NCBI GenBank assembly: GCA_030280995.1
Contig: JASXTE010000002.1
Coordinates: forward strand, 14,150,683 to 14,214,682
Source of the DNA: Hemileia vastatrix
Lineage: Eukaryota > Basidiomycota > Pucciniomycetes > Pucciniales > Zaghouaniaceae
Length of the DNA: 64,000 nucleotides
Direction of reading: 5' to 3'
Position numbers and translations under genes: made by a program. This document shows, piece after piece, positions 3,574-50,857 of this stretch. The notes under the pieces were generated by a model, which saw nothing but the letters and a program-made list of their open reading frames with translations, did not search any database and was not told the DNA's origin. Numbering within the stretch: position 1 is the stretch's first letter; each line of letters starts with the position of its first letter.

Positions 3574-3625
3574 CATAGGGGACCAACAAGTAAAATATTT
3601 GCTGATATTTAAAGTTTAAGGTAAT

Positions 3626-10842: not shown

Positions 10843-10959
10843 CTCTCTACTAGGGAGAAACTTCACACAGCAATGAATGCTATCACTTTAGATTTAGCCT
10901 CTGACTCTGACTCTGACTCTGGGTTGGAAGAGACTTTAGCTTATATGTATTTTCAATGA
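10843..10959 (+). pseudogene. Harbinger transposase N-terminal fragment
   Basis: The frame reads LSTREKLHTAMNAITLDL followed by an Asp-Ser repeat (SDSDSDSD) and GLEE, then TGA. It aligns with LSNRDKLHKAMTFMALEL and the Asp-Ser run at the start of the transposase in copies A and B. Only about 38 residues remain before the sequence runs into the TET-associated region, on the same strand. In A and B the two genes are convergent, so this locus is rearranged. Confidence 0.6.
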
Positions 10960-11099
10960 TATTTATGAAGAAGAGGATCCTAGACCTGCACCAGCTCTCC
11001 CCTCCCTTGAATCACAAATTATTCTTTCCACCAGCATACACTCTGACATTATACTAACCACCAGCCAACATTTTTAAAAAAACACTTTTATTTTTTTTC

Positions 11100-13100
11100 A
11101 TACTCTCCAAATGTTTAACTTCTATGTTTTATTCACTTGGTTTGGTGTTTTTTTTTTTCTTCATATTCATTTTTATTTTAAATTTATGCTGAATGTCTCT
11201 TTTTTGGATGTCTCATTTGTTTGCGTTCACCAGCTAAACATGAAATCACGTATTTTCTGCAATTGCATAATTTTTCACTGTTCCTTTTTTCATTCATCCA
11301 TCATATCCTTTTCCTCTTCTCTTCCAACATCCCTCAAACAATTTGGGTTCATTTATTTTCTCATCTCATCTCTTTAGGTAAGTCATTTTATTCTTTTTTT
11401 ATGATTTTATGATTGCTAATTATAATTCTTTTTGGTTTTTTTCTGTTTTTATTTTTATTTTTTGTATCTAAATTTTTTTTGTAAGTGGTTATTTTTGATT
11501 TCATTATAAAACAAACCTTTTTTTTCTCTCCCTCTTTACTTTCTTTTTTAGCTCTATCATCCTACTCTTCATCCCTCCTTGGCATAATCATTATCCCCTA
11601 TTTCCTCTATTTCACTTTTTTTTGGCTCCATGTCATTAAAACACATACATTTCACATTTTTTATGCATTTCATTTACTCCATATTCAATTTCTCTCAAAC
11701 TCCAACATCAATCTTTCTCTCTCTATTTTTCCTATTTTTCAATCAAGGTAAGTTTCATCTCCTTTTTTCATTACTAAATGATATCTCATTTCTTCTATCA
11801 AAATTTCATACTTGGACATATGTATAACTCTTATCTGGATAAAATTGAACTTATTAAACTCCTCTTGTTCTCATCTACATTACCACTTTTCAAGTTTTTG
11901 TAAAATTTTAAAAATATGACTCTAAATTAGGGTTAGGTTTATTCAAATCTAGTGTCATTATAACTGAAGATCCTTCTGAACACTACCTCTCACTTTTACA
12001 AACATATTTGAATTTGGTTCAGTGGTCGCTGAGATATTGACTGTTAAATTGAGCCTTTTTTTCCCAATTTAAATTTTTTTATTTCATGTTTTTATGTAAC
12101 AAATTAGGTTTATATTTATTTGAATCACATATATTTTAACTGAAGATTCTCCTGAAGCCTATCTTTCATTTCCCATAAATGGATTTTAATTTGGTTTTTT
12201 GGTTGCAGAGTTATTGGTCTTTAAAGTTGAGTCTTTTTTTCCAAATATAACATATATTATTTTATGTTTTTATATTGCATAATTAGAGAATAAGGCTTCT
12301 GAAACTATTATCTGATTATTATCTAGTCTTATATCTCCATCTTGTTGGTATTTTCATCATCAATTTTCAAATTTTTGTGCAAGTTTGACAATCAGAGTCA
12401 AAATTAGGTTCAGGCTAATTCAAATATTATGTTCTTTTAGATAAAGATTCTTCTAAAGCCTATCTTTTATATCCCATAAATGGATTTGAACTCAGTTAAG
12501 CGGTTACTGAGATATTGAACTTTAAAGTTGAGCCTTTTCTCTAAATTTCATTTAAGTTATTTCATTTTAGACCAGGATTTGTTATAGGCTATTCTGTTGG
12601 TATGTCTGATAGTATATGTTTCATTCTTAAAATCATGTCACTCTTTTTATTTCCATAGGAATCTATTCTTTACTCAAAAAAAGGTTTTCAAGTTCATCAC
12701 CAAATGACCAAAGCTCAACCTGGCTTGAAATCTGGTCAGGAGTTCACACACTTTGTATATTAATTTCATTTCAGTCAAAAATAAATTCACCAAATAAACA
12801 AGGTAAAAAAAGGAGGTAAATTTAACAAATAAAAAAAATTATAAAAATCCTGTGAAGAATTTACTTACTTTGGCTTTTCTTTTCAAATAAATAGGGATCT
12901 GGTCAATAGGATTGATATGGTATGAGAAAAAGGTGAGGTAAAACAAAAAACATTAAATAGAATGAAAAAGTATGGGGTGTAATATAGGTTGTCAACTTTT
13001 ATTTTTATTTCACAAATTAACATTTTACAAGTCATATATGATACTCTACTTACCCAAATTAATGAGCTATCAGCCCTGTGTTATATAATAGTAATCATGA
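11100..13100 (+). pseudogene. Degenerate third copy of the TET-gene region of the Harbinger element
   Basis: This is homologous to 36290-38100 (copy A). The splice signals are conserved: GTAAG at about 11378, TTTTTTAG before 'ctctatcatcc' near 11552, and CAAG-GTAAG at about 11748. In place of one ~200-bp intronic unit it has three tandem ones (about 11950-12560). The recognisable protein remnant is HHQMTKAQPGLKSGQEFTHF near 12692-12755, matching the distal part of the TET domain, and it quickly meets stops. The N-terminal half of the domain, with the HxD iron ligands, is missing. It is a non-functional relic. Confidence 0.7.
11940..12560 (+). repeat. Three tandem ~200-bp units in the relic intron
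   Basis: Each unit contains GAAGATTCTYCTGAA, a 'CCCATAAATGGATTT'-like phrase, and 'tcagtggttgctgagat'-like and 'aaagttgagcc'-like phrases. Copy A has one such unit (about 37110-37230), copy B two (about 41725-41830 and 41885-42010) and this relic three. Confidence 0.7.
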
Positions 13101-21811: not shown

Positions 21812-21823
21812 CTCCCTCACTCT
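21812..21823 (-). promoter_or_regulatory. Polypurine tract of element 1
   Basis: AGAGTGAGGGAG on the minus strand directly abuts the 3' LTR. The same 12-mer abuts the 3' LTR of element 2 at 49559-49570, supporting its role as plus-strand primer. Confidence 0.85.
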
Positions 21824-21845
21824 AAAAAAAACAATAAAAAAAATG

Positions 21846-24800: not shown

Positions 24801-24962
24801 CTCTTTAACTAATCCCAGTTCATGTGACCCATGAGCAAAGGCCATAGGAAAATATTTTATCAAGTTAATGATGGAATCTTTATCCTCACCTGAAAGTTGT
24901 TCTCCAAAAGAAGCATTGTCAATTTCAGACATAAGGGCATGCATTTTTTTTGTAGATCTTCC
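21846..24962 (-). pseudogene. Element 1 pol: reverse transcriptase, RNase H, integrase, chromodomain
   Basis: One reading frame in phase with gag, but interrupted by TAA at 23211-23213 between RNase H and integrase. RT carries the intact YIDD box (about 24277-24292), though a conserved FGPKN is FCPKN. RNase H shows YTDAS (about 23845) and ECLAVVWALEKL. Integrase has the HHCC finger (HDYILAGH then CDSC), and DRDPKFTSEFW and HPQTDGLDER supply the second and third acidic residues. The first catalytic Asp is replaced by Gly (codon 22929-22931, MGFVTGLP), where element 2 keeps MDLVTGLP. The C-terminal ~60 residues form a chromodomain (EIEKILNDR...YLLRFKNKSSEYDSWIP) ending in a Lys-rich tail. The element can no longer integrate by itself. 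Confidence 0.93.
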
Positions 24963-27869: not shown

Positions 27870-28121
27870 TTTAAGATTCTACTGAAATGAAGAAAAGAGA
27901 CAATAAGATTAATTAGTCTTTATTTTTGATTTTTTAAAAAAAAAAATAAATAAATAAAAAAATCTTTTTCAGGATAAAAATCAATTTAAATAAAATTAAT
28001 TTATTAATAGAAAAAAAATTTGAAACCAGGATTATAATATAATCAACTGTAGAAATAAATTAGAATTTTTATTAATAATTTTTAATTATTTATTTTAAGG
28101 ATTTAAATCAACTAATTTATT

Positions 28122-28480
28122 ACCAGGACTTATTGTCAACTGAAGTAATCAAATATGAAACTTTATTAATTCAACAAAATTTTATTAAACTGATAACTTA
28201 ACTACCAGGACTTAATGTCAACTGAAGTAATTAAATATAAATTTTTATTTTAAAATTTTATTAAGCTTGATCACTTAATTACCAGGACTTAATGTCAACT
28301 GAAATAATTAAATGTGAGTTTTATTAATTAAAATATTTATTGAATTACTAGGACTCAAAGTCAACTGAAGTAATTAAATATTAATTATATATTAATTTAA
28401 AAAAAATATTATTGTCAGGACAATTTGTCAACTGGAACAATTAAAATTTAAATTAATCAGGAAAAATGTCAACTGAAAAA
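28122..28480 (-). repeat. Leader repeats of element 1
   Basis: Six imperfect units start near 28122, 28204, 28281, 28347, 28414 and 28457, with a poorer one near 28024. The plus-strand core is ACCAGGACTTAATGTCAACT, i.e. CAGTTGACATTAAGTCCTGG in the sense direction. The units lie in the untranslated leader between 5' LTR and gag, spaced 43-82 bp apart. Confidence 0.85.
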
Positions 28481-28934
28481 TTATAATAATTAATGTTAAA
28501 ATACAATTATTTTATTACTTCTGGGACTAAGAACACTTATTGCTCTATTATGGTCAACCAGGAAAAATAAAAAAAATATAATAATAAAAATAAATTCCAA
28601 ATTACCAGACACCTCCCCCTGTAAAATGAGCAAATTAATGCCACTTACAGAGTGCTGATTAAAAGGAAATACGTAGCAAATGAAGAGTGAAGAGTAACCC
28701 ACAAATAGTAATATCAATAATTACCACGATATATACGACGTTTAGTCAGTATATGAACCTAAGTTTTGGAGCGCGGTTCGATTCCCATTTGCAGCAAAAA
28801 CTTTTGTCACGTGACGTATCATGTTCGTCGTTTTCTCGCCTCTCTCGTCCTTTACAGGTACTTGTACACTGATGGTCCCTTCAATTACGCCTCAGTTAAC
28901 GTTGCACCGTCGATATTTTGGAAAGGTTCCCGAT

Positions 28935-29735
28935 TGTCAAGCTACCCTTTTGGTCTAGAAAGTTTGGTATGAAGTTTTACAAGGATTTTAAGGGTTAAAA
29001 TGGATTCTCAACAATTTGGTACATATTTCTTAATCTAAGTGATTTAATTACTCAAATAAAAGAGGTATATTTTAAATATTGATATAATTTATAGATCAGA
29101 GTTATGTTATTGTAAATACTAATGTTATAGAATATAAGAATAAGTTTGATGTTTGTAATTGTAATAAAATAATGTAGTAAAGGAATGAATAAAAAACAAC
29201 CAAAAGAGAGGCCTTATATAGGCAAAGGAGGGACAAAGCACGGCAATCAAATTCTGAAAACAGTAGTATGAGAGAGAGAGAAAAAGAATATTCCAGAAGA
29301 AGTATTTTCAAATAATAAAGTTGTTCTAAAAAGAAGGCGTCAAAAAGATGTATTTACAGAGTATGTCAGAAATACATCAATTTATTTAATATTTACTGTA
29401 GAAGTCAATTCTAAATAAGAAATTTGAATTTTTGTATATATTTAATATTATTTGAATATTAAAATCTTATTTTAATTTAAAATTTATTTTTTTAATATAA
29501 ATCTTTAGTTCTTCCAACCTGTCAAATGAGCACGGTGTTAGAGAAAAAATATAAGGGACAATTTCATATTTAATTTTAATTATTCATTTAATTTTATCAT
29601 TCTGTAATTAGTTAGTTTATTATAAGTAATTTTAATGTAACTAATTTATAATTAAATAATTAAAATGATAAGGTGCGGCTTCATCCAGTAAATAATTAAT
29701 TATTTCACTGGGTAAGTCTAGTAGCCTGGCTGACA
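28935..29735 (-). repeat. Element 1 5' LTR (801 bp)
   Basis: It is the partner of 21010-21811, with a TATATAAGG box at 29212-29220 on the minus strand. The sequence immediately downstream (28934 leftward, ATCGGGAACC) does not begin with the usual TGG of a tRNA primer-binding site, so the primer is undetermined. Confidence 0.93.
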
Positions 29736-31190
29736 AAAAGTGTCCAGCACAAGTTTGGCTGAACTTGTGCTGGACACTTTTTTGATGGTGAGTATCTAGA
29801 GTGCAGCTCTTCTTCAGTGCAACTGGTATTTTTTTAAAACATATCCACTGGTATTTGATCTTTCTGTTTTATTAATATTTTATCATTTGATCAATTTTTT
29901 GTTACCAGTATATTATTATTTTTATTAGTATAGCAAAAAAACATGTGCCAAATGCTTACAGGGTGATGTTAAACCTTTAATAATTTTATTAAATACAGGT
30001 AAAAAATTATCAAAATGATTTGTTTTACATAAAATTAATTGATATCTAAAAGAAAAAAAAGGGATAAAAAGAAATAGGTTGAATAATAGGGATTTTATAT
30101 GAAATTCAAAATTCAAGCTAAATGCCTACTTTCAAGGCTCAGAAGAGGTGTTGGATAAAATGGGAATCATCAGGAATAAAATTTTACTTAATTTGATTTT
30201 TTGAAAAACTAAATGAAGTTTTTAACTGATATTTTTCCAATATTTAGTTGGACACTTTATCTATATCAAATTACTTCTAGTACCATGATTGACCAAATTA
30301 AATCCTCATTTCCATATGCAGAATTGATCCCATATGGCTGGACCAGACCAAAGGTGTCAACCACAAGTTTGAGAATTCTTCTGGTGGACACTTTTATGAT
30401 GGACAGTAGTAGGGTGTTAGTCTTCTTTAGTTAATCTAGTATTCCTCATAAACATTTCCAACTTATTTTTGGCCAAAAATCAGGTGGAAATTTTTTCCAT
30501 ATAAAATTACTTCTAATGCCATGATTGACTAAAAATTGATTCTCATTGCCATATAGAGAGTTGATCCCATATGACTGGATCTGGCAAAAGTGTCACCACA
30601 ATTTTTGATAAACTTAAGTTTGAAAATTTTATGATGGAAAGTAATTGCAAGTCTTCTTACTTTCATCAAGTAATCCTCATAAAAATTTCCACCTGTATTT
30701 TGGCCAAACTTCAGGTGGACACTTTGGCCATATTAAATTAATTCTAGTTCAATGTTGATAAAAAACTGATACTTATTGCCATATATAGATATTAAACCCA
30801 TCAGACTGTGCCTTTACAAAAGTGTCTACCAGAATTATGGCTAAACCTTAGTTGGACACTTTTATGATGCAGAGTAGCTAGGGCAAAAGTATTCTTCAGT
30901 TAGTTTGGTATTCATAATAAATTTATCCTCCTGAAGTTTAGCCTAACTTGAGGTGGAAAATTTCGGAAAGCACCAGTTAGTAACTATCCATCAAAAAAGT
31001 GTTCACCAAAATTTTGGCTAAACCTGTTGTGGACCCCTTTGATCAGCCACAGTCAGATGAGATCAACTCTTTAGATGGGAATGAGGATGATGTTTTGGTC
31101 AATTATGGAAATAGAAGTAGTGTGATGTGGCCAAATTACCCCCCTGAAGGTTAGACAAACCTCAGAAGGACACTTTTTAGCAGGGAGTAA
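29736..31190 (+). repeat. Satellite array, right part, decaying and folding back
   Basis: The interrupted palindrome resumes at 29736 after the target duplication. Further copies near 30349, 30590, 30815 and 31000 are truncated and more diverged, with spacing falling to about 200-240 bp. From about 31040 to 31190 the satellite appears in reverse orientation (its complement contains 'catctgactgtgg' and 'actacttctatttccat'). The array edge is therefore an inverted junction. Confidence 0.85.
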
Positions 31191-34864: not shown

Positions 34865-35098
34865 GAAATATTTAGAAGGTCATCCTTTTTTATTTACTTG
34901 AATAAATGGCTCAATTATAATGCCCGACACTTATTAATGTTTCCCAAACTCAATAACAAATTTCTGATATAAAATATTAGCTTCTAATATAAGCAGTTTA
35001 TCTATAGCTGATATTCAACATGGGATTTTATTTTTAGATTCAGCTAAAATAAAACAAAAGGAGCAATTATGCATATGTGTATAAATGGTAACCATATG
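32541..35098. other. AT-rich non-coding DNA
   Basis: Very AT-rich with poly-A/T runs and a (TA)n microsatellite at about 34833-34866. No coding similarity, LTR or inverted repeat was recognised. Confidence 0.6.
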
Positions 35099-35818
35099 TG
35101 TCAGCCAGGCTATACCAGGAGCCCAGCAAATTATATGTTAATTTATTGGACCTGAAAGAGGGCGTAAGAATTGTATTTTATGTATATAAATTAATATTTT
35201 ATTACATAATAAAATTATATAAGTATCTTATTAATAATAAGTGTTATATTAATTTTATTGTTATATAAATTTTTATACATTTAAATTAAGCTTAATATAT
35301 TTTATATTATAAAAATAATGGCCCATTTTTATGTATTTAATAATTTTAAATTAATAATCAATTATTTACAAAACATATATTATAATTATATATGTAAAAT
35401 TGACTTATAATGTAATTAAGTTAATTAATTAATTTTATATATTAAATAAAACTTCATATATTATTAAGCAATAATATTGGGCACTTCTTTTGACCCTTAA
35501 TTGTGTCAGGAAAAAAATTATTAAATAAATTATAATACTTATTTAATAACATAGTATTAAAATCCCCATTTTAAATTACAAATAACACTAAATTAATTAT
35601 CTGTTTCATTTAAGCTAATTATTGAATTAATTACATAGTTAAAACAATTACTTAAAATTGCTATAAACTGAAATGAATCTATTCCATGAATTTGGGCGTG
35701 AAAATAATTTTATTTGTTTTACTTTAAACCTTTACATGTCACTATGATATCTGTTTTTGGATATTTTTACTCATTGTTCTCATGTTTCAGACTTACTTGG
35801 TTAATGATTATTTTAATT
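35099..35818 (+). repeat. Element 2 5' LTR, truncated (first ~720 of ~1287 bp)
   Basis: It matches 49571-50292 closely, then stops where transposon copy A begins. The matching 3' LTR continues for another ~565 bp, including its TATA box, and none of that is found on either side of the nested insertions. The promoter half of this LTR is therefore lost. Confidence 0.9.
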
Positions 35819-35934
35819 AGGGGGTGTCAGTTCTGGCAAATCCGCACTTAACTTAAGTGCGGATTTCAAACCAAATCAGCACTTACAAATCAGCACTTAA
35901 ATTTTGCAAAAAGGTCACTTATTTCAAAAAAGGG

Positions 35935-36200
35935 TGTCAGTTATGACCTCAAATCAGCACTTTTTTCCCGTTTTTTTTCACAACCACATTTTGGCCACAA
36001 AACATCCCTTCCTTTCTTACCCCATCCCTGTCACATGTGACACACTGACCTTCCTCGCTACCTACCCATCAATCCTCGGCACACACCCCTTCCTGACATT
36101 TTCAATATTTTGACCAGGCATGTTTACATTCTTTTTTACTTATTTCTTCTACTTCTTAATCTTTTTTCTATGGGTGTCAGTTCTGACCTCAAATCAGCAC
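35935..36200 (+). repeat. Repeated terminus-like motifs inside copy A
   Basis: GGGTGTCAGTTATGACCTC at 35935 and GGGTGTCAGTTCTGACCTC at 36172 resemble the outer terminus and are each followed by 'aaatcagcactttttt' and a 'ttggccaca' phrase. The left end has therefore been duplicated twice. Copy B has the mirror arrangement near 42930 and 43170. Confidence 0.75.
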
Positions 36201-36546
36201 TTTTTTGTGATTTTTTTTTTCAAAACCACATGTTGGCCACATCATCCCTTTCTTTCCCATACCATTATGTACTCTCCAAATTTCCTCTTTGTGTACTTCA
36301 TTCACTTGGGTTGGTATTTTGGTTTGTTGCATATTCATTTTTTTTGGAATTTACAGTGAAATTTTTTTTTTTGGATGGCTCATTGGTTTTCTTTCACCAG
36401 CTCAACATGAAATCGCATATTTTCTGAAATCACATATTTTGTCAGTGATTTTTTTTTTTCATTCATCCCTCATATCCTTTTCCTATTCTTCTCCAACATC
36501 CCTCAAACAATTTGGTTTCATTCATTTTGTCATCTCATCTCTCCAG

Positions 36547-36717
36547 GTAAGTCACTTTATTCTTTTTTTTTGATTTTTTGATTACTAATTATAATTTTTT
36601 TTGTTTTTTTCTGTTTATTTTATTTTTTTTATCTAAATTTTTTTTGTAAGTGGTTATTTTGGATTTCAATGGTATAATTAACCTTTTTTTTCTCTCCCTC
36701 TTTACTTTCTTTTTTAG
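36547..36717 (+). other. Predicted intron 1 in the TET-gene transcript (copy A)
   Basis: Donor CCAG|GTAAGT and acceptor TTTTTTAG|CTCC. Both boundaries are conserved in copy B and in the relic at 11.4-11.55 kb, which supports a spliced leader or upstream exons. The encoded content of the flanking exons is not recognisable. Confidence 0.5.
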
Positions 36718-36913
36718 CTCCATCACCCTACTCTTCATCCCTCCTTGGCATGGTCATTATCCCCCCTTTCTCTTATTTCACTTTTTTTTGGCTCCATTTC
36801 ATTGAAACACATACATTGCACATTCTTTATGCAGCTCACTTACTCCATATTCAATTTCCCCACAATTCCAACATCAATCTTTCTCACTCTATTTTTCCTA
36901 CTTTTCAATCAAG

Positions 36914-37316
36914 GTAAGTTTCATCTCCTTTTTTTCATGCCTATATGATATCTCATTCCTTTTATGAAAATTTCATACTTAAATATATGTATGACTCTTA
37001 TCTGGATAACAGTGAACTTATAAAACTCCTTTTGATCTCATCTTCATTACCACTTTTCAAGTTTTTGTAAAATTTTGAAAATCAGACTCGGAATTAGGGT
37101 TAGGTTTATTCAAATCTAATGTTCTTTTTACTGAAGATTCTCCTGAAGGCTACCTTTCATTTCCCACAAACAGATTTGAATTTGATTCAGTGGTTGCTGA
37201 GATTTTGACCTTTGAAGTTGAGCCTTTTTTCCAAATTTCACTTGTCTTATTTCACATTTTTATATTGCATATTTAGAGGATAAGGATTCCGAAACTCTTA
37301 TATGATTATTATCTAG
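36914..37316 (+). other. Predicted intron 2 in the TET-gene transcript (copy A)
   Basis: Donor CAAG|GTAAGT at 36914 is conserved in all three copies, with a possible acceptor ATCTAG at 37316. It contains the ~200-bp unit present once here, twice in copy B and three times in the relic. Confidence 0.4.
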
Positions 37317-37945
37317 GCATATATTTGTTGCTCAAGAATATCACTAAAGCTCAAAAAGATGAAGATTTTTGCTTATGGGACACTCTACCTTCCTTTAACT
37401 CTTTTCTTGCTCTTCGACTCAAAAAGCACTGTAATAAAGCATTTGAAAAAAATCATGAACTTGCAACCAAATTTGGAATACCAAATTGGTGTGACTCCGA
37501 ATGGGAAGATATCAGCCACGAATATCTTTTATTTTCTAATGTTATTATCACTCATTCTGGATTTCACAATAAAATTCACACTGATACCAAGGACACCAAT
37601 TTTCTTACTTTTGGTATATTCTCATATATCAAACCGATTACTGGCCAACCAATACCATCTCCAGCTAAAATCAAATGACATGGTTTATATTTTCCAGACC
37701 ACCGGTGCATCATTGATTTTGGTTTGGGAAATGGTATCATCAAAACTATTTGGAATTCTTCTAAGGATAATCATCAAAAGACCAAAGCTCCTCCTGGTTT
37801 GGAATCCTGTCAAGATTTAACACATTTTGGTTGCTCATTTCAAATCAGTCATAAGTTGATTCAAAGAATCAATAAGGTAATGAAAGAAGGTAAAGTTAAT
37901 CGATTTAAAAAAACTTTATTTAGATCCAAAAAGTATGGGGATTAG
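37317..37945 (+). pseudogene. TET/JBP-like 2-oxoglutarate/Fe(II) dioxygenase domain (copy A)
   Basis: This frame resembles the Tet-like 2OG-Fe(II) oxygenase family of rust and mushroom genomes. Successive signatures are KNITKAQKDEDFCLWDTLPS, FGIPNWC, THSGFHNKIHTDTKDTN, GIFSYIKPITGQPIP, HGLYFPDHRCIIDF, NGIIKTIWNSSKDNHQ and LTHFGCSFQIS. Iron ligands would be His (37577-37579) and Asp (37583-37585) of H-T-D plus the distal His (37772-37774). Family members oxidise 5-methylpyrimidines in DNA. One TGA (37676-37678) splits the domain just before HGLYFP and is shared with copy B. It stops at TAG 37943. The N-terminal exons are unresolved; I infer the domain begins near 37317. Family assignment is from memory of motifs, not a search. 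Confidence 0.8.
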
Positions 37946-38038
37946 AGTTGTCATCAAAAATTGTATATTTTTTCGTAAATTTTTAATAAATATTTTTTAT
38001 GTGTCAATTTCCTCAACTAAAGTAATGGGTCCACGACC

Positions 38039-38242
38039 TTGTGTTGTATAAATGGTAATCATGATAACATTTATTTGTTTCATGGGGTTCCTCTAGCCTA
38101 TACCTGTGGAAAGTCCCAAACTTTTGTTTCTAGATTTGATCTGCATTTTGGCTTAAGGGATTGTCATTACTTTAAACTAGGGAAATTGATATATATTAGA
38201 TATTTATTTAATAATTTACGTAATTATATTAAATTTAGATGA
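38039..38242 (+). other. Conserved short open frame downstream of the TET gene (copy A)
   Basis: A 67-residue open frame beginning MCCINGNHDNIYLFHG, almost identical in copy B (40671-40874). It may be a residual exon or merely conserved because the copies are recent duplicates. A decayed equivalent appears near 13070-13130. No family is recognised. Confidence 0.35.
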
Positions 38243-38469
38243 CTTCCACCACTTACTTCAATAAAATGCAGGGGGGGGTATTGCCAAATTTTCAAATCTG
38301 ACATGTGAAATTGATGACTTAGAAAAATTTTGGTGATATCCTCCCCTTGCTTCAATAAAATGCAGGGGAGAGTATTGCCAATTTTTTAAAACAGATATAG
38401 AATGTTTTTTGACTTGTAAATATTTTGGTGAAAATTTTTGACGAGAATGTGAAAGTAATTGTTTCCACC

Positions 38470-39081
38470 TTGAGCAGGTTTCTGGCTCAAAGGAATAGCA
38501 GTACCATCAACAAAACCAATACATCCTGGGAAGCCCTCTGCTTGCATAACCTGAAATGATTCAAGTCGCTCTTCTTTTGTTGGCCAGGTGAGAAGTTGAG
38601 ATTACAAGGAGTTGATGGCAGTGATACATTGTTTGGTATAAGTGTTAACTGAACCATACCCTAAATCAAAGACATTTTCTAAACGTTTCAAAGCGGCTCC
38701 ATTACCATTTGAACCCAAATGACATAGTGTGATGGCCAATTAAATTGAAGGATGTTGTTGTTCTTTTTGAGAATTATTGTGAAATATGGGATGATCCTGA
38801 ATAAGCTCAAGCAATTTAAGGATAAATTCCTGAGAAGTCCTGAACAGCTCTCTAAAACTGGGTGTAGATAGTTTAAGAAGTGTTTGGATGGTGTACTTGG
38901 GGGTATGAAGTACTTGAGGCTTTTTGGGAAGAAGGTAACGTTTCGTGGCCATTTTTGATAAAAAGACAAAATCTTCTTCTAGATCAGAATCAGAATCGCA
39001 ATCAGAGTCCAAGAGCAGTTCAAGAGCCATGAAAGTCATTGCTTTATGTAATTTATCATGATTTGAAAGTGAGGAAGGCAT
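38470..39081 (-). pseudogene. Truncated Harbinger transposase (copy A)
   Basis: ATG at 39081 opens the N-terminal region MPSSLSNHDKLHKAM with an Asp/Ser acidic run, then the helical region (IQLAITLCHLGSNGNGAALK, KQCITAINSL). The first catalytic motif follows: GFPGCIGFVDGTAIPLSQKP, Asp codon at 38506-38508. The protein is cut by TAA replacing Gln after HPSI (copy-A-specific) and by a TAA after INSL shared with copy B. Beyond AQGGK the similarity stops, so the second Asp and final Glu of the DDE catalytic core are gone. It cannot be an active transposase. Confidence 0.85.
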
Positions 39082-39389
39082 AACTCTTATATGATATGAT
39101 ATGAAGATGTAAGTGATGTACGATGTTTTTAGTTATGAAGTGTTATGCTGCGGAGTGCTGCGTATGAATGGGATGATGCTGACAAATCAGTGAAATGGGA
39201 CTTGATGGTGAAATCAGCACTTTTGGTTGAGAAAGTGCGGATTTGAGTGAAATAAGTGACTTATTTCATTTTGAAATCCACCAGTATTGGGGCTAGTGTG
39301 TTTTGGAAATCCGCACTTATTTAAGTGCGGATTTGGTCAAATTTAAGTGCGGATTTGTAAGTGCGGATTTGCCAGAACTGACACCCCCT

Positions 39390-39522
39390 ATTAACAAAAA
39401 AGTAATACACACAAATGTAATTAAAAATTTTTATTAAGAAATAATCAGTAATTAAAATGGGAACAACCAATAAAGGTCTATATAAGTCAACCAAAATAAT
39501 AAATACCAAAAATTAATATATT
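39390..39522. other. 133-bp spacer between inverted copies A and B
   Basis: AT-rich, flanked by ATT next to each terminus (CCCCCT-ATT ... ATT-AGGGGG). It matches neither the missing half of the element 2 LTR nor any other part of the window by eye. Its origin is unknown. Confidence 0.6.
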
Positions 39523-39830
39523 AGGGGGTGTCAGTTCTGGCAAATCCGCACTTACAAATCCGCACTTAAATTTGACCAAATCCGCACTTAAATAAGTGCG
39601 GATTTCCAAAACACACTAGCCCCAATACTGGTGGATTTCAAAATGAAATAAGTCACTTATTTCACTCAAATCCGCACTTTCTCAACCAAAAGTGCTGATT
39701 TCACCATCAAGTCCCATTTCACTGATTTGTCAGCATCATCCCATTCATACGCAGCACTCCGCAGCATAACACTTCATAACTAAAAACATCGTACATCACT
39801 TACATCTTCATATCATATCATATAAGAGTT

Positions 39831-40452
39831 ATGCCTTCCTCACTTTCAAATCGTGATAAATTACATAAAGCAATGACTTTCATGGCTCTTGAACTGCTCT
39901 TGGACTCTGATTGCGATTCTGATTCTGATCTAGAAGAAGATTTTGTCTTTTTATCAAAAATGGCCACGAAACGTTACCTTCTTCCCAGAAAGCCTCAAGT
40001 ACTTCATACCCCCAAGTACACCATCCAAACACTTCTTAAACTATCTACACCCAGTTTTAGAGAGCTGTTCAGGACTTCTCAGGAATGTTTCCTTAAATTG
40101 CTTGAGCTTATTCAGGATCATCCCATATTTCACAATAATTCTCAAAAAGAACAACAACATCCTTCAATTCAATTGGCCATCACACTATGTCATTTGGGTT
40201 CAAATGGTAATGGAGCCGCTTTGAAACGTTTAGAAAATGTCTTTGATTTAGGGTATGGTTCAGTTAACACTTATACCAAACAATGTATCACTGCCATCAA
40301 CTCCTTGTAATCTCAACTTCTCACCTGGCCAACAAAAGAAGAGCGACTTGAATCATCTCAGGTTATGCAAGCAGAGGGCTTCCCAGGATGTATTGGTTTT
40401 GTTGATGGTACTGCTATTCCTTTGAGCCAGAAACCTGCTCAAGGTGGAAAAA
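39831..40452 (+). pseudogene. Truncated Harbinger transposase (copy B)
   Basis: This is the better-preserved copy. It is open from ATG 39831 through KQCITAINSL to TAA at 40308-40310, then in the same frame through GFVDGTAIPLSQKP (Asp codon 40404-40406) to GGK near 40452. The shared TAA probably replaced a Gln codon (CAA). As in copy A, everything after the first catalytic motif is missing. Two direct repeats of about 50 bp (about 40526-40577 and 40626-40676) and a C-tract occupy the break. The acidic Asp-Ser N-terminus is also found in the relic at 10843. Confidence 0.85.
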
Positions 40453-40525
40453 ATTACTTTCACATTCTCGTCAAAAATTTTCACCAAAATATTTACAAGT
40501 CAAAAAAATTCTATATCTGTTTTAA

Positions 40526-40676
40526 AAAATTGGCAATACTTTCCCCTGCATTTTATTGAAGCAAGGGGTGGATATCACCAAAAATTTTCTAAGTCATCAA
40601 TTTTACATGTCAGATTTGAAAATTTGGCAATACCCCCCCCCCTGCATTTTATTGAAGTAATTGGTGGAAGTCATCT
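40526..40676 (+). repeat. Direct repeats at the transposase truncation point (copy B)
   Basis: Two units each contain TTGGCAATAC, a C-run, TGCATTTTATTGAAG and GGTGGA, about 100 bp apart. The mirror pair in copy A is at about 38240-38390. The C-run lengths differ (4 versus 9 or more), consistent with homopolymer slippage. Confidence 0.75.
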
Positions 40677-40967
40677 AAATTTAATATAATTACATAAATT
40701 ATTAAATAAATATCTAATATATACCAATTTCCCTAGTTTAAAGTAATGACAATCCCTTAAGCCAAAATGCAGATCAAATCTAGAAACAAAAGTTTGGGAC
40801 TTTCCACAGGTATAGGCTAGAGGAACCCCATGAAACAAATAAATATTATCATGATTACCATTTATACAACACAAGGTCGTGGGCCCATTACTTTAGTTGA
40901 GGAAATTGATACATAAAAAATATTTATTAAAAATTTACGAAAAAATATAAAATTTTCGATGACAACT

Positions 40968-41590
40968 CTAATCCCCATACTTTTTGGATCTAAATAAAGT
41001 TTTTTTAAATCGATTAACTTTACCTTCTTTCATTACCTTATTGATTCTTTGAATCAACTTATGACTGATTTGAAATGAGCAACCAAAATGTGTTAAATGT
41101 TGACAGGATTCCAAACCAGGAAGAGCTTTGGTTGTTTGATGATTATCCTTAGAAGAATTCCAAATAGTTTTGATGATACCATTTCCCAAACCAAAATCAA
41201 TGATGCACCGGTGGTCTGGAAAATATAAACCATGTCATTTGATTTTAGCTGGAGATGGTATTGGTTGGCCAGTAATCGGTTTGATATATGAGAATATACC
41301 AAAAGTAAGAAAATTGGTGTCCTAGGTATCAGTGTGAATTTTATTGTGAAATCCAGAATGAGTGATAATAACATTAGAAAATAAAAGATATTCGTGGCTG
41401 ATATCTTCCCATTCGGATTCACACCAATTTGGTATTCCAAATTTGGTTGCAAGTTCATGATTTTTTTCAAATGCTTTATTACAGTGCTTTTTGAGTCGAA
41501 GAGCAAGAAAAGAGTTAAAGGAAGGTAGAGTGTCCCATAAGCAAAAATCTTCATCTTTTTGAGCTTTAGTGATATTCTTGAGCAACGAAT
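40968..41590 (-). pseudogene. TET/JBP-like dioxygenase domain (copy B)
   Basis: Same domain as 37317-37945: KNITKAQKDEDF, HNKIHTDT, GIFSYIKPITGQ, HGLYFPDHRCIIDF, DNHQTTKALPG, THFGCSFQIS. It shares the TGA before HGLYFP with copy A. It also has a private TAG in place of Lys directly after the H-T-D-T iron-ligand motif (near 41321). It is therefore disabled twice. Sharing one nonsense codon in each of two genes shows that A and B descend from an already defective copy, or that one was duplicated from the other. Confidence 0.8.
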
Positions 41591-43287
41591 ATATGCCTAT
41601 ATAATTGAAATGCCTAGATAATAATCATATAAGAGTTTTGGAATCCTTATCCTCTAAATATGCAATATAAAAATGTGAAATAAGACAAGTGAAATTTGGA
41701 AAAAAGGCTCAACTTCAAAGGTCATAATCTCAGCAACCACTGAACCTAATTCAAACCTGTTTGTGGGAAATGAAAGATATGCTTTAGTAGAATCTTCAGT
41801 TAAGGGACATGTGATTTAAATAAACCTAACCCTAATTTGTTACATAAAAAAATGAAATAAAAATTTAAATTGGGAAAAAAAAGGCTCAACTTTAACAGTC
41901 AATATCTCAGCAACCACTGAATTAAATTCAAATCTGTTTGTGGGAAATGAAAGGTAGCCTTCAGGAGAATCTTCAGTAAAAAGAACATTAGATTTGAATA
42001 AAGCTAACCCTAATTACGAGTCTGATTTTCAAAACTTTACAAAAACTTGAAAAGTGGTAATGAAGATGAGATCAAAAGGAGGTTTATAAGTTCACTGTTA
42101 TCCAGATAAGAGTCATACATATATTTAAGTATGAAATTTTCATAAAAGGAATGAGATATCATATAGGCATGAAAAAAAGGAGATGAAACTTACCTTGATT
42201 GAAAAGTAGGAAAAATAGAGTGAGAAAGATTGATGTTGGAATTGTGGGGAAATTGAATATGGAGTAAGTGAGCTGCATAAAGAATGTGCAATGTATGTGT
42301 TTCAATGAAATGGAGCCAAAAAAAAGTGAAATAAGAGAAAGGGGGGATAATGACCATGCCAAGGAGGGATGAAGAGTAGGGTGATGGAGCTAAAAAAGAA
42401 AGTAAAGAGGGAGAGAAAAAAAAGGTTAATTATACCATTGAAATCCAAAATAACCACTTACAAAAAAAATTTAGATAAAAAAAATAAAATAAACAGAAAA
42501 AAACAAAAAAAATTATAATTAGTAATCAAAAAATCAAAAAAAAAGAATAAAGTGACTTACCTGGAGAGATGAGATGACAAAATGAATGAAACCAAATTGT
42601 TTGAGGGATGTTGGAGGAGAATAGGAAAAGGATATGAGGGATGAATGAAAAAAAAAATCACTGACAAAATATGCGATTTCAGAAAATATGCGATTTCATG
42701 TTGAGCTGGTGAAAGAAAACCAATGAGCCATCCAAAAAAAAAAATTCACCGTAAATTCCAAAAAAAATGAATATGCAACAAACCAAAATACCAACCCAAG
42801 TGAATGAAGTACACAAAGAGGACATTTGGAGAGTAAAAAATGGTATGAGAAAGAAAGGGATGATGTGGTCAACATGTGGTTTTGAAAAAAAAATCACGAA
42901 AAAAGTGCTGATTTGAGGTCAGAACTGACACCCATAGAAAAAAGATTAAGAAGTAGAAGAAATAAGTAAAAAAAGAATGTAAACATGCCTGGTCAAAATA
43001 TTGAAAATGTCAGGAAGGGGTGTGTGCCGAGGATTGATGGGTAGGTAGCAAGGAAGGTCAGTGTGTCACATGTGACAGGGATGGGGTAAGAAAGGAAGGG
43101 ATGTTTTGTGGCCAAAATGTGGTTGTGAAAAAAAACGGGAAAAAAGTGCTGATTTGAGGTCATAACTGACACCCTTTTTTGAAATAAGTGACTTTTTTGC
43201 AAAATTTAAGTGCTGATTTGTAAGTGCTGATTTGGTTTGAAATCCGCACTTAAGTTAAGTGCGGATTTGCCAGAACTGACACCCCCT

Positions 43288-43431
43288 AATTAATTGATTT
43301 TTGATAAAAATTAAAAAAAAAAAATTTTGTTAAAATTCAATAAATTTTATTTTGAAATAACAATTTAAATCATTAATTTTTTTTTTGATTCTATTTTAAC
43401 AGTTTAATTGTCCAATAGTTTGGCTAGCAGC
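43288..43431 (+). other. Remnant leader of element 2
   Basis: About 140 bp of AT-rich sequence between copy B and the gag ATG. The leader repeats seen in element 1 are absent, consistent with loss of the upstream leader together with the 3' half of the 5' LTR. Confidence 0.65.
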
Positions 43432-46400
43432 ATGGATAACTTACATGTGGATGAGATTGAAGTGGATAATGACACTGAATCTGTAGGTTCTTCTAAATTA
43501 ACTTACAAAAATGATTCAGCTGACAAAAAACCTTCAGGACGTGGAAATGGCAAGAGAAGTAGAAAACCCCCCTCACCAAACACCTCTGAAAGAAGTAAAA
43601 CCTCTAATAAATCAGGACAATCAACTCAAAGGTATAAAAATAAAAAAGATACCTCTAACCCAACAAGTAAACAATCTTTCCAGTCACATCAAAGAACTGA
43701 AAGCAGAAAGCATGAAGTTCAAGGCAAGGGTAGACACACTCTGGCAGCAGATGCAAGAATTGTTAAATCCCAAACAGGCTCAAACTCCTCATTTCCCAGC
43801 CTCTCAGCCTCAGCCTCAACCTCAGCCCAATCAGGTACCCAGCTCCTTCATGCAAAATCAAAGCACTCTGCAAGTGGAACAGTGGAAATGGGACTACTTG
43901 ATGAGCCATTACCAGCAGAATGCTCAGCAACTAGCTCAACACCCTGGCCCATCCAGGACAAAAACCTACCATCCATCTCCTCAGCCCCATCCTTATCAGG
44001 GAGGCAGAAGAAAGAAGGCACAGGGGAAGTTTCCTCCCTTACCATGGTAAGTAATTTTTTTGATAAACATGTTGGCATGTATAATAACAAAGCTTCCTCA
44101 GGTAATCTTCTGGATTCTGGTGAAAGAACAGTTAAACCTTTAAAAAGACAACTTCATTTAATGAGTAGCCCCAATGATGTAATTAGAAACTTATCATTTG
44201 ATGAACCTTTACATTTGACTTCTACTTCTTTAATTAATCCTTCTCTTGCAATTAAGAATGATTCTGTTTCCCCTGAAGTTTAAACCTTAATTGAGAAAAC
44301 TTCTGAAGAAATATTGAAAGATACCCTTGATTTTAATGTTGGGAAAGACAAACATTTGAGAGATGTGTTAATCTATGAGAGTGATAGATTAAATAATTTG
44401 CACTTGCATTGTAAAGTAAGTTCTTCTGTACAGGATACAGCTTATTTTAAAATCAAAGAACCCTTGAATATTGTTCTTAGCCAGCAAAAACAAATAAGGA
44501 GTGACCATAGAGCTTTCTCAGATAAAAATATCAATCTACATAAACCTTGAGTGAATTGAAACCCCTTATTGACAAAAATTATTCATTAAAAAGTGAAATA
44601 AAAGCTCTAAAAAATGAGTTTAAAAAGCTAAAAAATGATTTCCATGCACTAAATGCCAAACACACAGTTTCTGAGGACAGAAATGTTTTGTCTCTTGAAA
44701 AAGTAAATGACTAGATGTCTGAAATTCCAAGGATAAGAAACTATGTGTCTGACCTGCAGGAAAAATTTCCAACCTTAACCATCAATAATTATGGTATAAA
44801 TGTAAGTGCTGCCCATAAGCTGCATAAAAATAAAGAAAAAGAACCTGAGCAGAGTTCCTCCTTTCTTCCTCATATTTCAGCCATTAAACAAACTGACAAT
44901 GAGTCTGTAAAATCTTTTTCTACTAGCAAAAAATCTTGTGATGGTCATGTACCAGCTGTTTCTGTAAATAATGAAATTTCTGAACACCTGGCTAAACTTC
45001 AGGAATTATTAATGATGAATAGTTCAAACCAAAAAATGGACCATTCCAGTAGTCAGAAAAATTTGCCTAAATTGGACCAATATCCTACCTTTGATGGTGA
45101 CTCTTCTTCTGATTGGCAACACTTTATCCAAAGAATTGATAATTTAAAGAGATCTTATAAACTACCTGATGAGGAAATTGTTTCTAAGCTAATCTCTTTA
45201 TTTTCTAATGTAGCCTTGATGTGGTATGAATCTGTCCTTTTAGATAACTATCATTATACATGGAATGATTTGAAATCCTTGATTTAGAATCAGTTTGGTG
45301 GCTCAAAATTCATGTTAGCTCAGCAAAGACTGTATGAGAATACTAGATATGTATCCTCCTCTGTTGAAAAACCCATTGTTTTTCTTATGAAAGTAACAAA
45401 AATCCTGAGAGCAATTGATCCAAAGATGGATTATGATATTTGGAGAGATAAAATCTTGTATAAATTACCAAATTCTCTTAGAGATTTAATTTTAGCTAGA
45501 ACTGAGCATGTAAGGGAAAATTCTTCTTTCATTAATATCTGTAATGAGGTGCTACTCAACCAGAAATATGAACCAAAGAATTACCTTGGTAAATCTTATC
45601 ATGATCAAAATAAACCCTCTACAAAGCCCCCAGAAAAATCTGGTAAACCCTCTGCACCAGTTGCACCTAAAAAATATGCAACAAATACTTGTTATAAATG
45701 TAACAAACCAGGGAAAAAGGTTCATGTTTGTGACAAGAAAATTCTTCTTGTTGAACAAAATGAAGACACTGATGAAGCTGAAATTGATGTCAATAATTCT
45801 TCTAGTGACTGTGAAAGTAATATCTCCTATGGAAATGACTCTGTTAAAGATGTTTTGATGTTAGAACAGGATGTCCATTATTTAGATAATATATCTGAAG
45901 AATCTGTATTGGATTTATCTTCAGTGGAAAATGCTGAAATAATTAAAGATATTACTAACAATTCTATAGCCATATCCCCTTTGAAAGCACCTGTTATCAT
46001 TAATGGTAAAAATGTTGATGTAGCTCTTGACTCTGGTGCTGGAGGAAGTGTAGTTTCTGAAAAAGCTTTAGCTTCAGTAGATAAGGATTATTTGAGTAAA
46101 TTATTACCTATAACTTCTGAAAAATGGAGAGAGTATGGTTCTACCTTAATTCCTATTGGCAAATACAAAACCTCTGTATTCTTCAAATATAATGGTGGTT
46201 TTGTCAGAGCTATTAGTGAATTTGTTGTCATGAAAAATGATAATTTAAGCAATTGGTTTATTATGGGTAATGATATTTTAACCATTTTTGGTGTGAAATT
46301 GGACGCAGCAAACAATTGATTTACCTTAGGATTGAATGGCAAAAGGAAATTCAAAATTTCCTCCTCTAGAAAACCTTCTGGGCATCTGTTAAAGTCTTGT

Positions 46401-49400
46401 AACTCACTGATGCAGTGTAAAGGCAGACCAACAATTGAAATGGATGATTTATTAACTGAAATAAATACTGCTTCTTTTGGTGATCAGTTAACTAGTGAAC
46501 AAAAGGATTCTATAATTGCCTCAATTACCTCTTTCCCTATGGCTTTTGCTCATGGTTCTCATGTCTTAGGAAGTGTTCAGGAAGAAATGAAAATTACCTT
46601 ATCCTGTAACTTGAGTGATATTCCTCCTAGTCTTAAGAAAAATCCATATCCTGCTTCTCCAACAAAAAGAAAGGATATTGAAGATAATATTGCCACATTA
46701 TTAAAAATGAATATCATTGAGAAAGTGGATGTCACCCTTAAATTTTGTGTCATCTCCCCGGTTTTAATTTCTTATGAAAAAGATAAGGATAGATTATGTG
46801 GAGATTACAGAGCATTAAACACTTATACTGTTGATGATATTTATCCTTTACCCAGAATTAATTCAATACATGCTACCTTGCAAGGTGCAAAATTTATTAG
46901 TTGTCTGGATGGAAATAAAGGGTATCATCAAGTTCCTGTTGAGAAAAATTCTCAAAATTATTTGCTTATTGCTACTCATATGGGAATATATAAGTATGTC
47001 AGGATGCCATTTGGACCTAAGAATGCCCCTTCAGTTTTTCAAAAAGTCATGGATAACACTTTCCATCAGGAAATAATTGAGGGATGGCTCATGGTGTATA
47101 TTGATGATATCATAGTTTTTTCAAAAACTTTTGATGAACATATGGTTCATTTAAATAGTTTTTTCCAAAAAATGGATGAAATCAATATGACCTTGTCCTT
47201 GAAAAAGTGTAAATTTGGTTATCAATCTTTGAAAGTCCTTGGCCATGTTGTGTCAGGCCTACAAATTTGTTTAGACCACAACAAAGTTGCTGCTATTCAA
47301 AATGTAAAGGCACCAACTTCTGTAAGAGAAATCCAAAGTTTTTTGGGTATGTGTGACTATTATAAACAATATATTAAAAATTATCAAGTCATAGCCTTGC
47401 CTCTTACCAAACTAACTAGGAAAGATGTTGCATTCATCTGGAATATTGACTGTCAAAAAACTTTTGATGCATTAAAATGTTGCCTAATGACAGCCCCTAT
47501 CTTAGCTCTTCCACATTTTAACAAACCATTTGTCCTGTATACAGATGCTAGCTTTGTATGTCTGGGTGCTGTCCCTCACCAGAAACAAATTATTAATGAT
47601 AAATCCTCAGAGGTTGTAATTTGTTATATTTCAAGAACCTTGAGAAATAGTGAATTGAAATATGGTGCCACTCAATTAGAGTGCTTAGCAGTTGTTTGGG
47701 CTCTTGAGAAGCTTCATTACTATCTAGATGACCAAAAGTTTGAATTGGTAACTGACTTTAGTGCTGTGAAGTCCCTCTTAAACCTGAAAACACCTAATAG
47801 ACATATGTTCAGGTGGCAACTTGTTGTTCAAGAATAAAAAAGACGGATGACAAGTATCCATAGGGCTGGAAATTTTCACTCCAATGTTGATATGCTTTCC
47901 AGATTGCCTTTGCCAAATAATAACTCAAATCCTGCTTATTTACCTGAAGATGATACTGTTCATATCTATGGTATATTTATAGTTGATATGGAAGAAGAGT
48001 TATTGCAATTAATACTGGATTCATATGATAAGGATTCTGATTTAAATAAATTGGTTACTATCTTAAATGATCCTAAGAATGCTTCAATTCAAGCATTGAT
48101 AAAAACTCTTCCTGCAAAGTATCAAAATGCTTTGAGTAAAGGAAAGTTTTCTATTGAAGATGGTTATATATATTATAGAAGAAAGCTTACTAATGTAATT
48201 GTAATTCCTCCCTCTATGAAAGAAACTATCCTCAAACTTTGTCATGATGACATATTATCTGTTCATTTTGATCTTGAAAAAACATTGATTAGAATCAAAA
48301 ACACTGCATGGTGGGCTAATATGTCTCAAGACACAAAATTATATGTTGAATCTTGTGATTCCTGCCAAAAATCTAAAAGGTTAACAGGCAAAAGAGCAGG
48401 ATAATTACAACATATTGAAGCACCTAATGCTCCTTGGCAAATAATTAAGATGGATTTAGTCACTGGTCTTCCTGTTGCAGGTAAAGACAGCTTTAACTCT
48501 TGTTGGGTAATAGTAGATAGATTCACAAAAATGTGAAATTTTATTCCTACCCACAAAGATGTATCCACAAAAGAATTAGCTTTCTTATGGTGGTCTTCCA
48601 TGTTTGATATTATTGGTTTTCCAAAAGCCATTATCTCTGATAGGGATCCAAAATTTACTTCTGAGTTTTGGACCTCTTTGATGGATATTTGTGGCTGTGA
48701 GTTAAAATTTTCTACAGCTCACCATCCTCAGACTGATGGTCTATCTGAGAGAATTATTCAAACTCTGGAAGATATGATTAGAAGGTATTGTTCCTTTGGT
48801 TTAGAATATAAAGACAATGACAGATCTACTCATGACTGGGTCACTCTATTGCCTGGTCTTGAATTTGTATATAATAGCACTGTTCATTCTGTCACTGAGA
48901 AAAAGCCTTTTGAGCTTTGGTTAGGTTATGTCCCAAATACTCCCGCTCAGATTCTCAATAATAAATTACCTAAGTTGGAACTACACCCTGGTGTAAAGTC
49001 TTTTATTCAAATGCAACAGCTATGTAGGAAACATGCTCATAGCTGTATTGAAAAAGCATTAGAATATGAAAAGAAAAGATGGGATAAATCCCATAAGGAA
49101 TACACATTTAACAAGGATGATGAAGTGTTGATTTCTACTTTCCATTTCAATTTACAAGGTAAAAACAAATTAAAAGATCCTTTTGTAGGACCATTTGTTG
49201 TTAAAAGAATGGTTGGAGATAATTCAGTAGAAGTTGTATTGTATTCTCCATATGATAGGAAACATCCTGTTTTTCCCATTTCTTTAATTAAGCCTTATAC
49301 TTCCAACAGTGACTTATTTCCCAAAAGAAGGGGAAGACCTAAGAAAAACACTCAGGAAGTAACAGATACTGCAGAAATTGATAAAATTCTCAATGATAGA

Positions 49401-49538
49401 ATTATCACTTCTGAAAGAGGTACTGATTATTTATTGAGATATAAAAACAAATCATCTGAGCATGATGCATGGATACCTGGAAAGGAGATTTCAAATCTTC
49501 CTTCTTCGTTAAAAAAATACAAAAAGAAAAAATCTTAG
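43432..49538 (+). pseudogene. Element 2 gag-pol (many stops, one frameshift)
   Basis: ATG at 43432 (MDNLHVDEIEVDN) starts Gag. The aligned polyprotein is interrupted by stops at 44281, 44548, 44712, 45285, 46317, 47835, 48402 and 48533, and shifts frame near 44550. Domains in order are: basic Ser/Pro N-terminus overlapped by a +1-frame protein; capsid-like region (FDGDSSSDWQHF...MWYESVLLD); CYKCNKPGKKVHVC knuckle near 45690; LDSGAGGSV protease (46026-46052); RT with FGPKN and YIDD (47097-47108); RNase H YTDAS; and integrase HHCC, MDLVTGLP, SDRDPKFTSEFW and HPQTDGLSER. All three integrase acidic residues are retained. A chromodomain (EIDKILNDR...YLLRYKNKSSEHDAWIP) ends in KKYKKKKS. It is a relative of element 1, more decayed by stops but with an intact integrase triad. 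Confidence 0.93.
43547..44052 (+). CDS. Second, +1-frame protein overlapping gag (element 2)
   Basis: It is open from ATG 43511 or, by alignment with element 1, ATG 43547 (MAREVENPPH) to TAA at 44050-44052. It contains GIKIKKIPLTQQVNNLSS and HIKELKAESMKFKARVDTL, a Gln/Pro-rich middle, VEQWKWDYLMSHYQQ and a basic end PHPYQGGRRKK...LPW. The same relative frame and order occur in element 1. The last codons overlap a donor-like CATG|GTAAGT (44047) with CTTCCTCAG at 44101. Splicing would still place TAA directly after the Trp. The gag frame around it is full of decay while this frame has stayed open, which is suggestive. Function is unknown; the coiled coil suggests a multimerising partner. Confidence 0.6.
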
Positions 49539-49558
49539 CATTTTTTTGTTGTTTTTTT

Positions 49559-49570
49559 AGAGTGAGGGAG
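49559..49570 (+). promoter_or_regulatory. Polypurine tract of element 2
   Basis: AGAGTGAGGGAG directly precedes the 3' LTR, identical to element 1. Confidence 0.85.
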
Positions 49571-50857
49571 TGTCAGCCAGGCTATACCAAGAGCCCAGAA
49601 AATTATATTTTAATTTATTGGACCTGAAAGAGGGCGTAAGAATTGTATTTTATGTATATAAATTAATATTTTATTACATAATAAAATTATATAAGTATCT
49701 TATTAATAATAAGTGTTATATTAATTTTATTGTTATATAAATTTTTATACATTTAAATTAAGCTTAATATATCTTATATTCCACAAAAAATGGCCCATTT
49801 TTATGTATTTAATAATTATAAATTAATAATCAATTAATTACAAAACATATATTATAATTATATATTTAAAATTGACTTATAATGTAATTAAGTAAATTAA
49901 TTAATTTTATATATTAAATAAAACTTCATATATTATTAAGCAATAATATTGGGTGCTTCTTTTGACCATTAATTGTGCCAGGAAAAAAATTATTAAATAA
50001 ATTATAATGCTTATTTAACAACATAGTATTAAAATCCCCATTTTAAATTACAAATAACACTAAATTAATTATCTGTTTCATTTAAACTAATTATTGAATT
50101 AATTACATAGTTAAAACAATTACTTAAAATTGCTTTAAACTGAATTGAATCTATTCATGAGTTTTGGCGTGACAATAATTTTATTTGTTTTACTTAAAAC
50201 CTTTACATGTCACTATAATATCTGTTTTTGGTTATTTTTACTCATTGTTCTCATGTTTCAGATTTACTTGGTTAATGATTATTTTAATTAAGTGTTTTGG
50301 GATGTTATTGTGGGAAAAGGATTAATTACTCACGGGTTTTAGTCAATTGTGTCATATTTTTCTCTTGATAGTCATGTTTCATCTTCTATTATTTTATCTC
50401 TTGTTTTAGCTATTTCTAATTTGTATTTATTGATTGGTGGCGCTTCAGGGGTCCCTTGGTCTATAAAAGGGCCTTGGATAATCCCCTTTTAAGCATCACT
50501 TACTATACAACCAAAATTTGAACATATTGCTAATATAATACGTTTTATTATTATTTTTATTAGTATTAAAATTCTAATTTAAATTTTATATAACTATTTA
50601 CAGGTTGCTTTAAGTCTGATAGTAATTATAGTGTTTTCCGCACAGAAATAATAATCTTTACTTAAAATAAATATTGTCATTTAATAGTCCTCAATATTGT
50701 CAGCCCTCAAGTAAATTGTCGTTGCCTCTCTTTAAATAAATTTAATCATTTTATTATTCCACTACTTTTACTTTTTATAAACCTTTTCTTTCCTATTCCC
50801 CTTTCCTCTTCTTCTTCTTTTTCCTTTTCTTTCCTTCTTCTAGACAACCGACCGACA
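49571..50857 (+). repeat. Element 2 3' LTR (1287 bp)
   Basis: TGTCAGCC...CGACA, followed by the target duplication ATATG. It holds a TATA box (CTATAAAAGG, 50461-50470) about 400 bp before its end. A pyrimidine-rich tail (50790-50840) closes it. Confidence 0.93.

What the first reader, a model, noticed from the sequence alone, without database searches (positions are those of the whole stretch)
35819..43287. A PIF/Harbinger-type transposon that carries a TET/JBP-like DNA dioxygenase gene
Seen: one pair of inverted termini encloses a transposase fragment with the Harbinger motif GFVDGTAIPLSQKP. Tail-to-tail with it is a domain with HxD...H and the THFGCSFQIS signature of rust Tet-like 2OG-Fe(II) oxygenases. 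The arrangement occurs in two copies, and a rearranged third locus (10843-13100) again has both genes adjacent. Known: fungal TET/JBP genes have been linked to KDZ-type transposons. Inference: an independent association with Harbinger elements could let an element oxidise methylcytosine on its own DNA and escape silencing.
Basis: partly seen in the sequence, partly recalled or inferred. Interest (0 to 1): 0.87.

Follow-up and report, generated by a model that had tools for sequence, protein, structure and literature searches.

The report
Broken rust PHISTA-like transposons with TET
Two decayed copies of a jumping gene, apparently from a rust fungus, each carry the remains of a TET-like DNA-modifying enzyme; the pairing is real, but elements of this kind were described in rust fungi in 2025.

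Summary
Two inverted copies (35820-39388 and 39524-43286; 48 differences in 3566 aligned columns) have perfect 32-nt terminal repeats, TA at all 4 outer ends and 12 subterminal AAATC[C/A]GCACTT motifs each. Each encloses a Tet-like dioxygenase remnant (PF20515, best E 4.3e-17) tail to tail with a Harbinger-like transposase remnant. Both copies share an in-frame stop in each gene, and no DDE catalytic core was recognised. The third locus is an older, rearranged relic of the same family.

Kojima 2025 (PMC12730594) describes fifteen TET-carrying Harbinger families with TA target duplications from six rust species (PHISTA) and proposes the same escape from silencing. Clade placement cannot be tested here.

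The window cannot show that TET acts on its own element: both copies carry lesions older than their divergence, and CpG sites in them change faster than other C/G sites. Copies elsewhere in the genome could not be examined: the genome search did not complete 14 times. Verdict: known kind, degraded members, low interest.

The parts
35820..39388 (+). PHISTA-like TET+ element, copy 1 (3569 bp): left end, TET remnant on +, transposase remnant on -, right end
39524..43286 (-). Copy 2 (3763 bp), inverted relative to copy 1; 48 differences in 3566 aligned columns plus 200 gap columns; repeat unit 41667-41837 / 41844-42015 present twice where copy 1 has it once
35819..35850 (+). Left TIR of copy 1, 32 nt, counting the A of the flanking TA
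39358..39389 (-). Right TIR of copy 1, 100% complementary to the left one
35838..36202 (+). Six subterminal AAATC[C/A]GCACTT motifs (both orientations), left end of copy 1
39211..39370 (-). Six subterminal motifs (both orientations), right end of copy 1
35932..36223 (+). Two TIR-like internal repeats, 35932-35983 and 36172-36223 (87% alike), oriented like the left TIR
37277..37675 (+). TET-like remnant of copy 1, first piece with HTD (PF20515 profile 51-159)
37679..37945 (+). TET-like remnant of copy 1, second piece with distal H and THFGCSFQIS (profile 177-208); an in-frame stop lies between the pieces
38386..39132 (-). Transposase remnant of copy 1 (open pieces 38740-39132 and 38386-38601); shares one stop with copy 2 and has one more of its own
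39780..40556 (+). Transposase remnant of copy 2 (open pieces 39780-40307 and 40311-40556)
40968..41624 (-). TET-like remnant of copy 2 (pieces 41322-41624 and 40968-41234); has one stop more than copy 1
10843..12976 (+). Third, older relic: transposase N-terminus 10843-10947, TET upstream region 11094-12568, two tandem TET C-terminal fragments 12695-12838 and 12845-12976, all on +
35098..50290 (+). Host context: Gypsy-like LTR retrotransposon (superfamily recalled) whose 5' LTR remnant 35098-35819 ends at copy 1; matching part of the 3' LTR 49570-50290 (96.12%)

Best explanation
These are two non-autonomous, decayed copies, plus one older relic, of a PHISTA-like PIF/Harbinger DNA transposon with TA target sites that carried a TET/JBP dioxygenase gene convergent with its transposase. 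Their common parent already had a stop in each gene and probably lacked the transposase catalytic core; its ends could have been moved by a transposase supplied from elsewhere. In intact relatives the TET enzyme most likely oxidises 5-methylcytosine on transposon DNA and so weakens silencing. Shown here: TIRs, TA flanks, subterminal motifs, both gene remnants, shared stops. Inferred: mobilisation in trans, the enzyme's chemistry, the anti-silencing role.
For: PF20515 matches in both copies. 32-nt TIRs and TA at 4 of 4 ends. 24 of 24 motif matches lie in the element ends. Transposase homology to P0001 and P0002. The same stop in each gene in both copies. Four open frames from the interval between the genes gave no Pfam match at E up to 10. 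PHISTA with TA TSDs and TET described in rusts (PMC12730594: section 3.1 in full; discussion part 1 of 2).
Against: No DDE profile hits the transposase pieces; the Harbinger label rests on a recalled motif, short unannotated relatives and the TIR/TA structure. P0002 itself ends where the match ends (aligned to residue 131 of 132), so loss of the core is inferred from the missing profile match, not from a breakpoint. In a register shifted by one base, copy 1 is flanked by ATT/ATT and copy 2 by ATT/AAT, so the 2-bp duplication is not the only reading for copy 1. Neither right flank continues the LTR that copy 1 interrupts. PHISTA elements encode a third protein; none was recognised. The host was not identified.
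Confidence: 0.85

Rival explanations
1. The TET gene is a nested passenger: a separate TET-bearing element inserted into a Harbinger element.
For: Two extra TIR-like repeats lie between the outer left TIR and the TET gene.
Against: Both point the same way and no inverted partner was found beyond TET: the 8 matches of the TIR core (up to 2 mismatches) are the 4 outer ends and these two repeats in each copy. The third relic again holds both genes within about 2.1 kb. Kojima found no termini of their own around TET genes (PMC12730594).
Confidence: 0.08
2. About how the pair arose, not excluding the best explanation: one copy is an inverted duplicate of the other (or an assembly artefact), not a second transposition.
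For: Opposite orientation 135 bp apart, 98.65% identity, the same stops.
Against: Similarity stops at the TIRs (35813-43293), TA at each of 4 ends and unlike flanks beyond it.
Confidence: 0.3
3. Also about origin: the locus is a recombinant of several insertions of one family within the LTR retrotransposon, with loss of the rest of the 5' LTR and leader.
For: The LTR remnant ends at copy 1 and its continuation (after 50290) is not recognisable beside either right flank.
Against: A simple deletion would do the same; weak AT-rich matches leave uninformative.
Confidence: 0.35

Closest known systems
PHISTA, TET+ PIF/Harbinger transposons of rusts (Kojima 2025, PMC12730594)
   Same: TIR element with TA target sites, Harbinger-type transposase and a TET/JBP gene in rust fungi; A. 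psidii is listed among the hosts of the fifteen TET+ families.
   Different: The window copies are 3.6-3.8 kb, have stops in both genes, no recognised DDE core and no recognised third protein. The name is given there to the lineage from Puccinia. Table S1 and Figure 1 were not held, so identity with a named family is untested.
Dileera (KDZ) TET+ transposons of rusts
   Same: A DNA transposon carrying a TET/JBP gene.
   Different: Its representative Zisupton-1_PGr makes 8-bp TSDs and belongs to KDZ; here the flanks are TA and the motif is Harbinger-like.
ESTA, TA-TSD TET+ elements of the CMCT clade
   Same: TA target sites and a TET gene in rusts.
   Different: ESTA transposases resemble RAG1; the GFVDGTAIPL stretch here is Harbinger-like by recalled motif, not by profile.

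Membership tests
PHISTA | TA dinucleotide target sites | tested here: met
   4 of 4 outer ends abut TA; weak for any one copy, and the register was chosen afterwards
PHISTA | TIR-bounded element | tested here: met
   32-nt perfect TIRs
PHISTA | TET/JBP gene between the TIRs | tested here: met
   PF20515 in both copies
PHISTA | Harbinger-type DDE transposase in the PHISTA clade | tested here: inconclusive
   N-terminal part and first D region only; no DDE profile; 51-54% identity to P0002/P0001; no tree possible
PHISTA | A third encoded protein without Myb/SANT | tested here: inconclusive
   None recognised; four frames upstream of TET in copy 1 gave no Pfam match at E up to 1
PHISTA | Termini matching published families | not testable with these tools
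   Figure 1 and Table S1 not held; supplement look-ups capped at 0
Canonical PIF/Harbinger | 3-bp TSD, TWA (TWA recalled; 3 bp) | tested here: not met
   Flanks of GGGGG..CCCCC are TTA/TAT (copy 1) and TTA/TAA (copy 2); one base further out they read ATT/ATT and ATT/AAT, a 3-mer match in copy 1 only and not TWA
TET/JBP (PF20515) | Tet-like 2OG-Fe(II) oxygenase profile with HxD...H | tested here: met
   E 4.3e-17; HTD and distal H inside the matched stretches; profile positions 1-45 not found
TET/JBP (PF20515) | Oxidises 5mC | not testable with these tools
   No activity data; frames interrupted in both copies

The most novel reading that the evidence does not exclude
A disabled, TET-carrying derivative kept its full array of subterminal motifs and spread after both genes were broken. 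TET+ PHISTA families would then work as helper systems in trans: enzymes from intact copies protect and move defective relatives that share the AAATCCGCACTT motif.
Probability: 0.15. Interest if true: 0.45.

Novelty: already known. Interest (0 to 1): 0.2.

Why it matters
It confirms from raw sequence that TET genes ride inside Harbinger-like transposons in what appears to be a rust. It also shows a practical caution: these copies are broken in both genes, so counts of TET-like genes in such genomes may overstate the number of working enzymes.

Tried and rejected
Protein searches with two TET pieces found nothing; the transposase N-terminal piece found 3 of 71 candidates, all on contigs of 0.9-1.1 kb. 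PDB sequence search with a TET piece: 28 matches at E up to 10, best 0.029 (a ferritin), taken as chance. Pfam on four frames upstream of TET: none. Pfam on four frames between the genes: none. Rfam: 0 matches. An empty site was sought in the 3' LTR: the left junction fits, the right does not.

CpG content as a sign of protection was considered and rejected. Observed/expected CpG is 0.31 and 0.33 in the copies; 0.05 and 0.15 in two retrotransposon stretches and 0.09 in the third relic, but 0.31 in the adjoining LTR remnant, 0.19 in the tandem array, 0.50 and 0.47 in two other stretches and 0.29 for the window. Age is not controlled and the copies are broken. Transitions at CpG against other C/G positions: 8 of 76 against 18 of 1156 (the copies), 0 of 4 against 12 of 142 and 4 of 14 against 9 of 184 (two LTR pairs), 5 of 14 against 85 of 406 (third relic against copy 2).

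Structure prediction was not run.

Full report
What is there. The span holds two elements, not one. Copy 1 is 35820-39388; copy 2 is 39524-43286, inverted, 135 bp away. They differ at 48 of 3566 aligned columns (98.65% identity), with 200 gap columns, mainly one repeat unit that copy 2 has twice. Copy 1's TIRs are 32 nt and fully complementary; the 40-nt ends of copy 2 read the same as those of copy 1. All 4 outer ends abut TA. The motif AAATC[C/A]GCACTT occurs 24 times in the window, all in these ends, six per end. It is probably a transposase-binding array (inference). In 2000 position pairs 3500 bp apart the longest inverted match was 15 nt or less in 1999; the exception is copy 1 against copy 2.

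The dioxygenase. Two adjoining pieces in each copy match PF20515: E 4.3e-17 and 6.1e-6 in copy 1 (the latter 0.2 bits under the cutoff), 5.2e-14 and 8.3e-8 in copy 2. HTD and the distal H lie inside the matches. Profile positions 1-45 of 211 were not found. An AG that could be a splice acceptor precedes the first piece (by eye), but four upstream frames gave no match. The same in-frame stop separates the pieces in both copies; copy 2 has a further one.

The transposase. It is convergent with TET. No DDE profile hits it; one piece has a sub-cutoff SepSecS match. The N-terminal piece is 54% identical over 149 aa to P0001, the second 51% over 47 aa to P0002, through GFVDGT. That this is the first catalytic region of Harbinger transposases is recalled. 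P0002 ends where the match ends, so it cannot show where the window copy breaks off; but four frames from the interval between the genes match no Pfam family at E up to 10, and no second D or E region was recognised. One stop is shared by both copies and copy 1 has another. I infer that neither copy makes a working transposase.

Third locus. tblastn finds the transposase N-terminus at 10843-10947 and two tandem TET C-terminal fragments, 12695-12838 and 12845-12976, all on +. Between them lies the region upstream of TET, about 85% identical to the main copies in its longest stretch. The HxD half was not found. This is a relic of the same family with changed arrangement, not an independent association.

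Setting. The pair lies in a Gypsy-like LTR retrotransposon (superfamily recalled): reverse transcriptase and RNase H profiles at 46320-47834, and an LTR remnant 35098-35819 that ends at copy 1 and is 96.12% identical to 49570-50290. The rest of that LTR is not recognisable beside either right flank. The window is 31% GC with a CpG ratio of 0.29, which resembles what is reported for Austropuccinia psidii, whose transposons are AT-rich, CpG-depleted and mostly Gypsy (PMC8063080, passages seen). The host was not identified.

Mechanism. Best reading: a defective derivative of a TET-carrying PHISTA-like transposon, with intact ends, moved in trans or was duplicated after both genes broke; the shared stops predate the split of the copies. 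In living relatives the enzyme probably oxidises 5mC on transposon DNA; nothing here tests that. Between the copies 8 of 76 CpG positions against 18 of 1156 other C/G positions show transitions, so CpG decay goes on in them; the numbers are small, and the two LTR pairs give 4 of 14 against 9 of 184 and 0 of 4 against 12 of 142.

Comparison with print. Kojima 2025 (PMC12730594; sections 3.1 and 3.4 in full, part 1 of 2 of the discussion, figure legends, passages elsewhere) reports fifteen TET+ Harbinger families with TA TSDs from six rust species, designates the Puccinia lineage PHISTA, and proposes escape from silencing. Five paper searches were answered; this paper headed three of them. Here TA flanks, TIRs and TET are met; the canonical 3-bp TWA duplication is not met; clade placement and third protein are inconclusive.

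Limits. The paper's family tables were not held.

Noticed in passing
14420-21016: Tandem array with a period of about 610 bp, units roughly 73-82% alike; related sequence again at 29730-30963.
   Followed up: no
21010-29735: A second Gypsy-like retrotransposon on the minus strand, LTRs 21010-21811 and 28935-29735 (97.25% over 801 columns), long open gag-pol-like frames.
   Followed up: partly
3618-5115 and 61719-63228: Dispersed direct repeat of 1.5 kb, 83% identical, not identified.
   Followed up: no
36270-37277 and 11094-12568: The region upstream of TET is more alike between copy 1 and the old relic (85.5% over 1003 bp) than the TET coding stretches (75% and 66% DNA identity), and holds repeat units of about 170-240 bp that vary in number.
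   Followed up: partly
38231-38398: Two copies of a 74-nt repeat (81% alike) between the convergent genes, next to the end of the transposase remnant; possibly a scar of the lost core.
   Followed up: no
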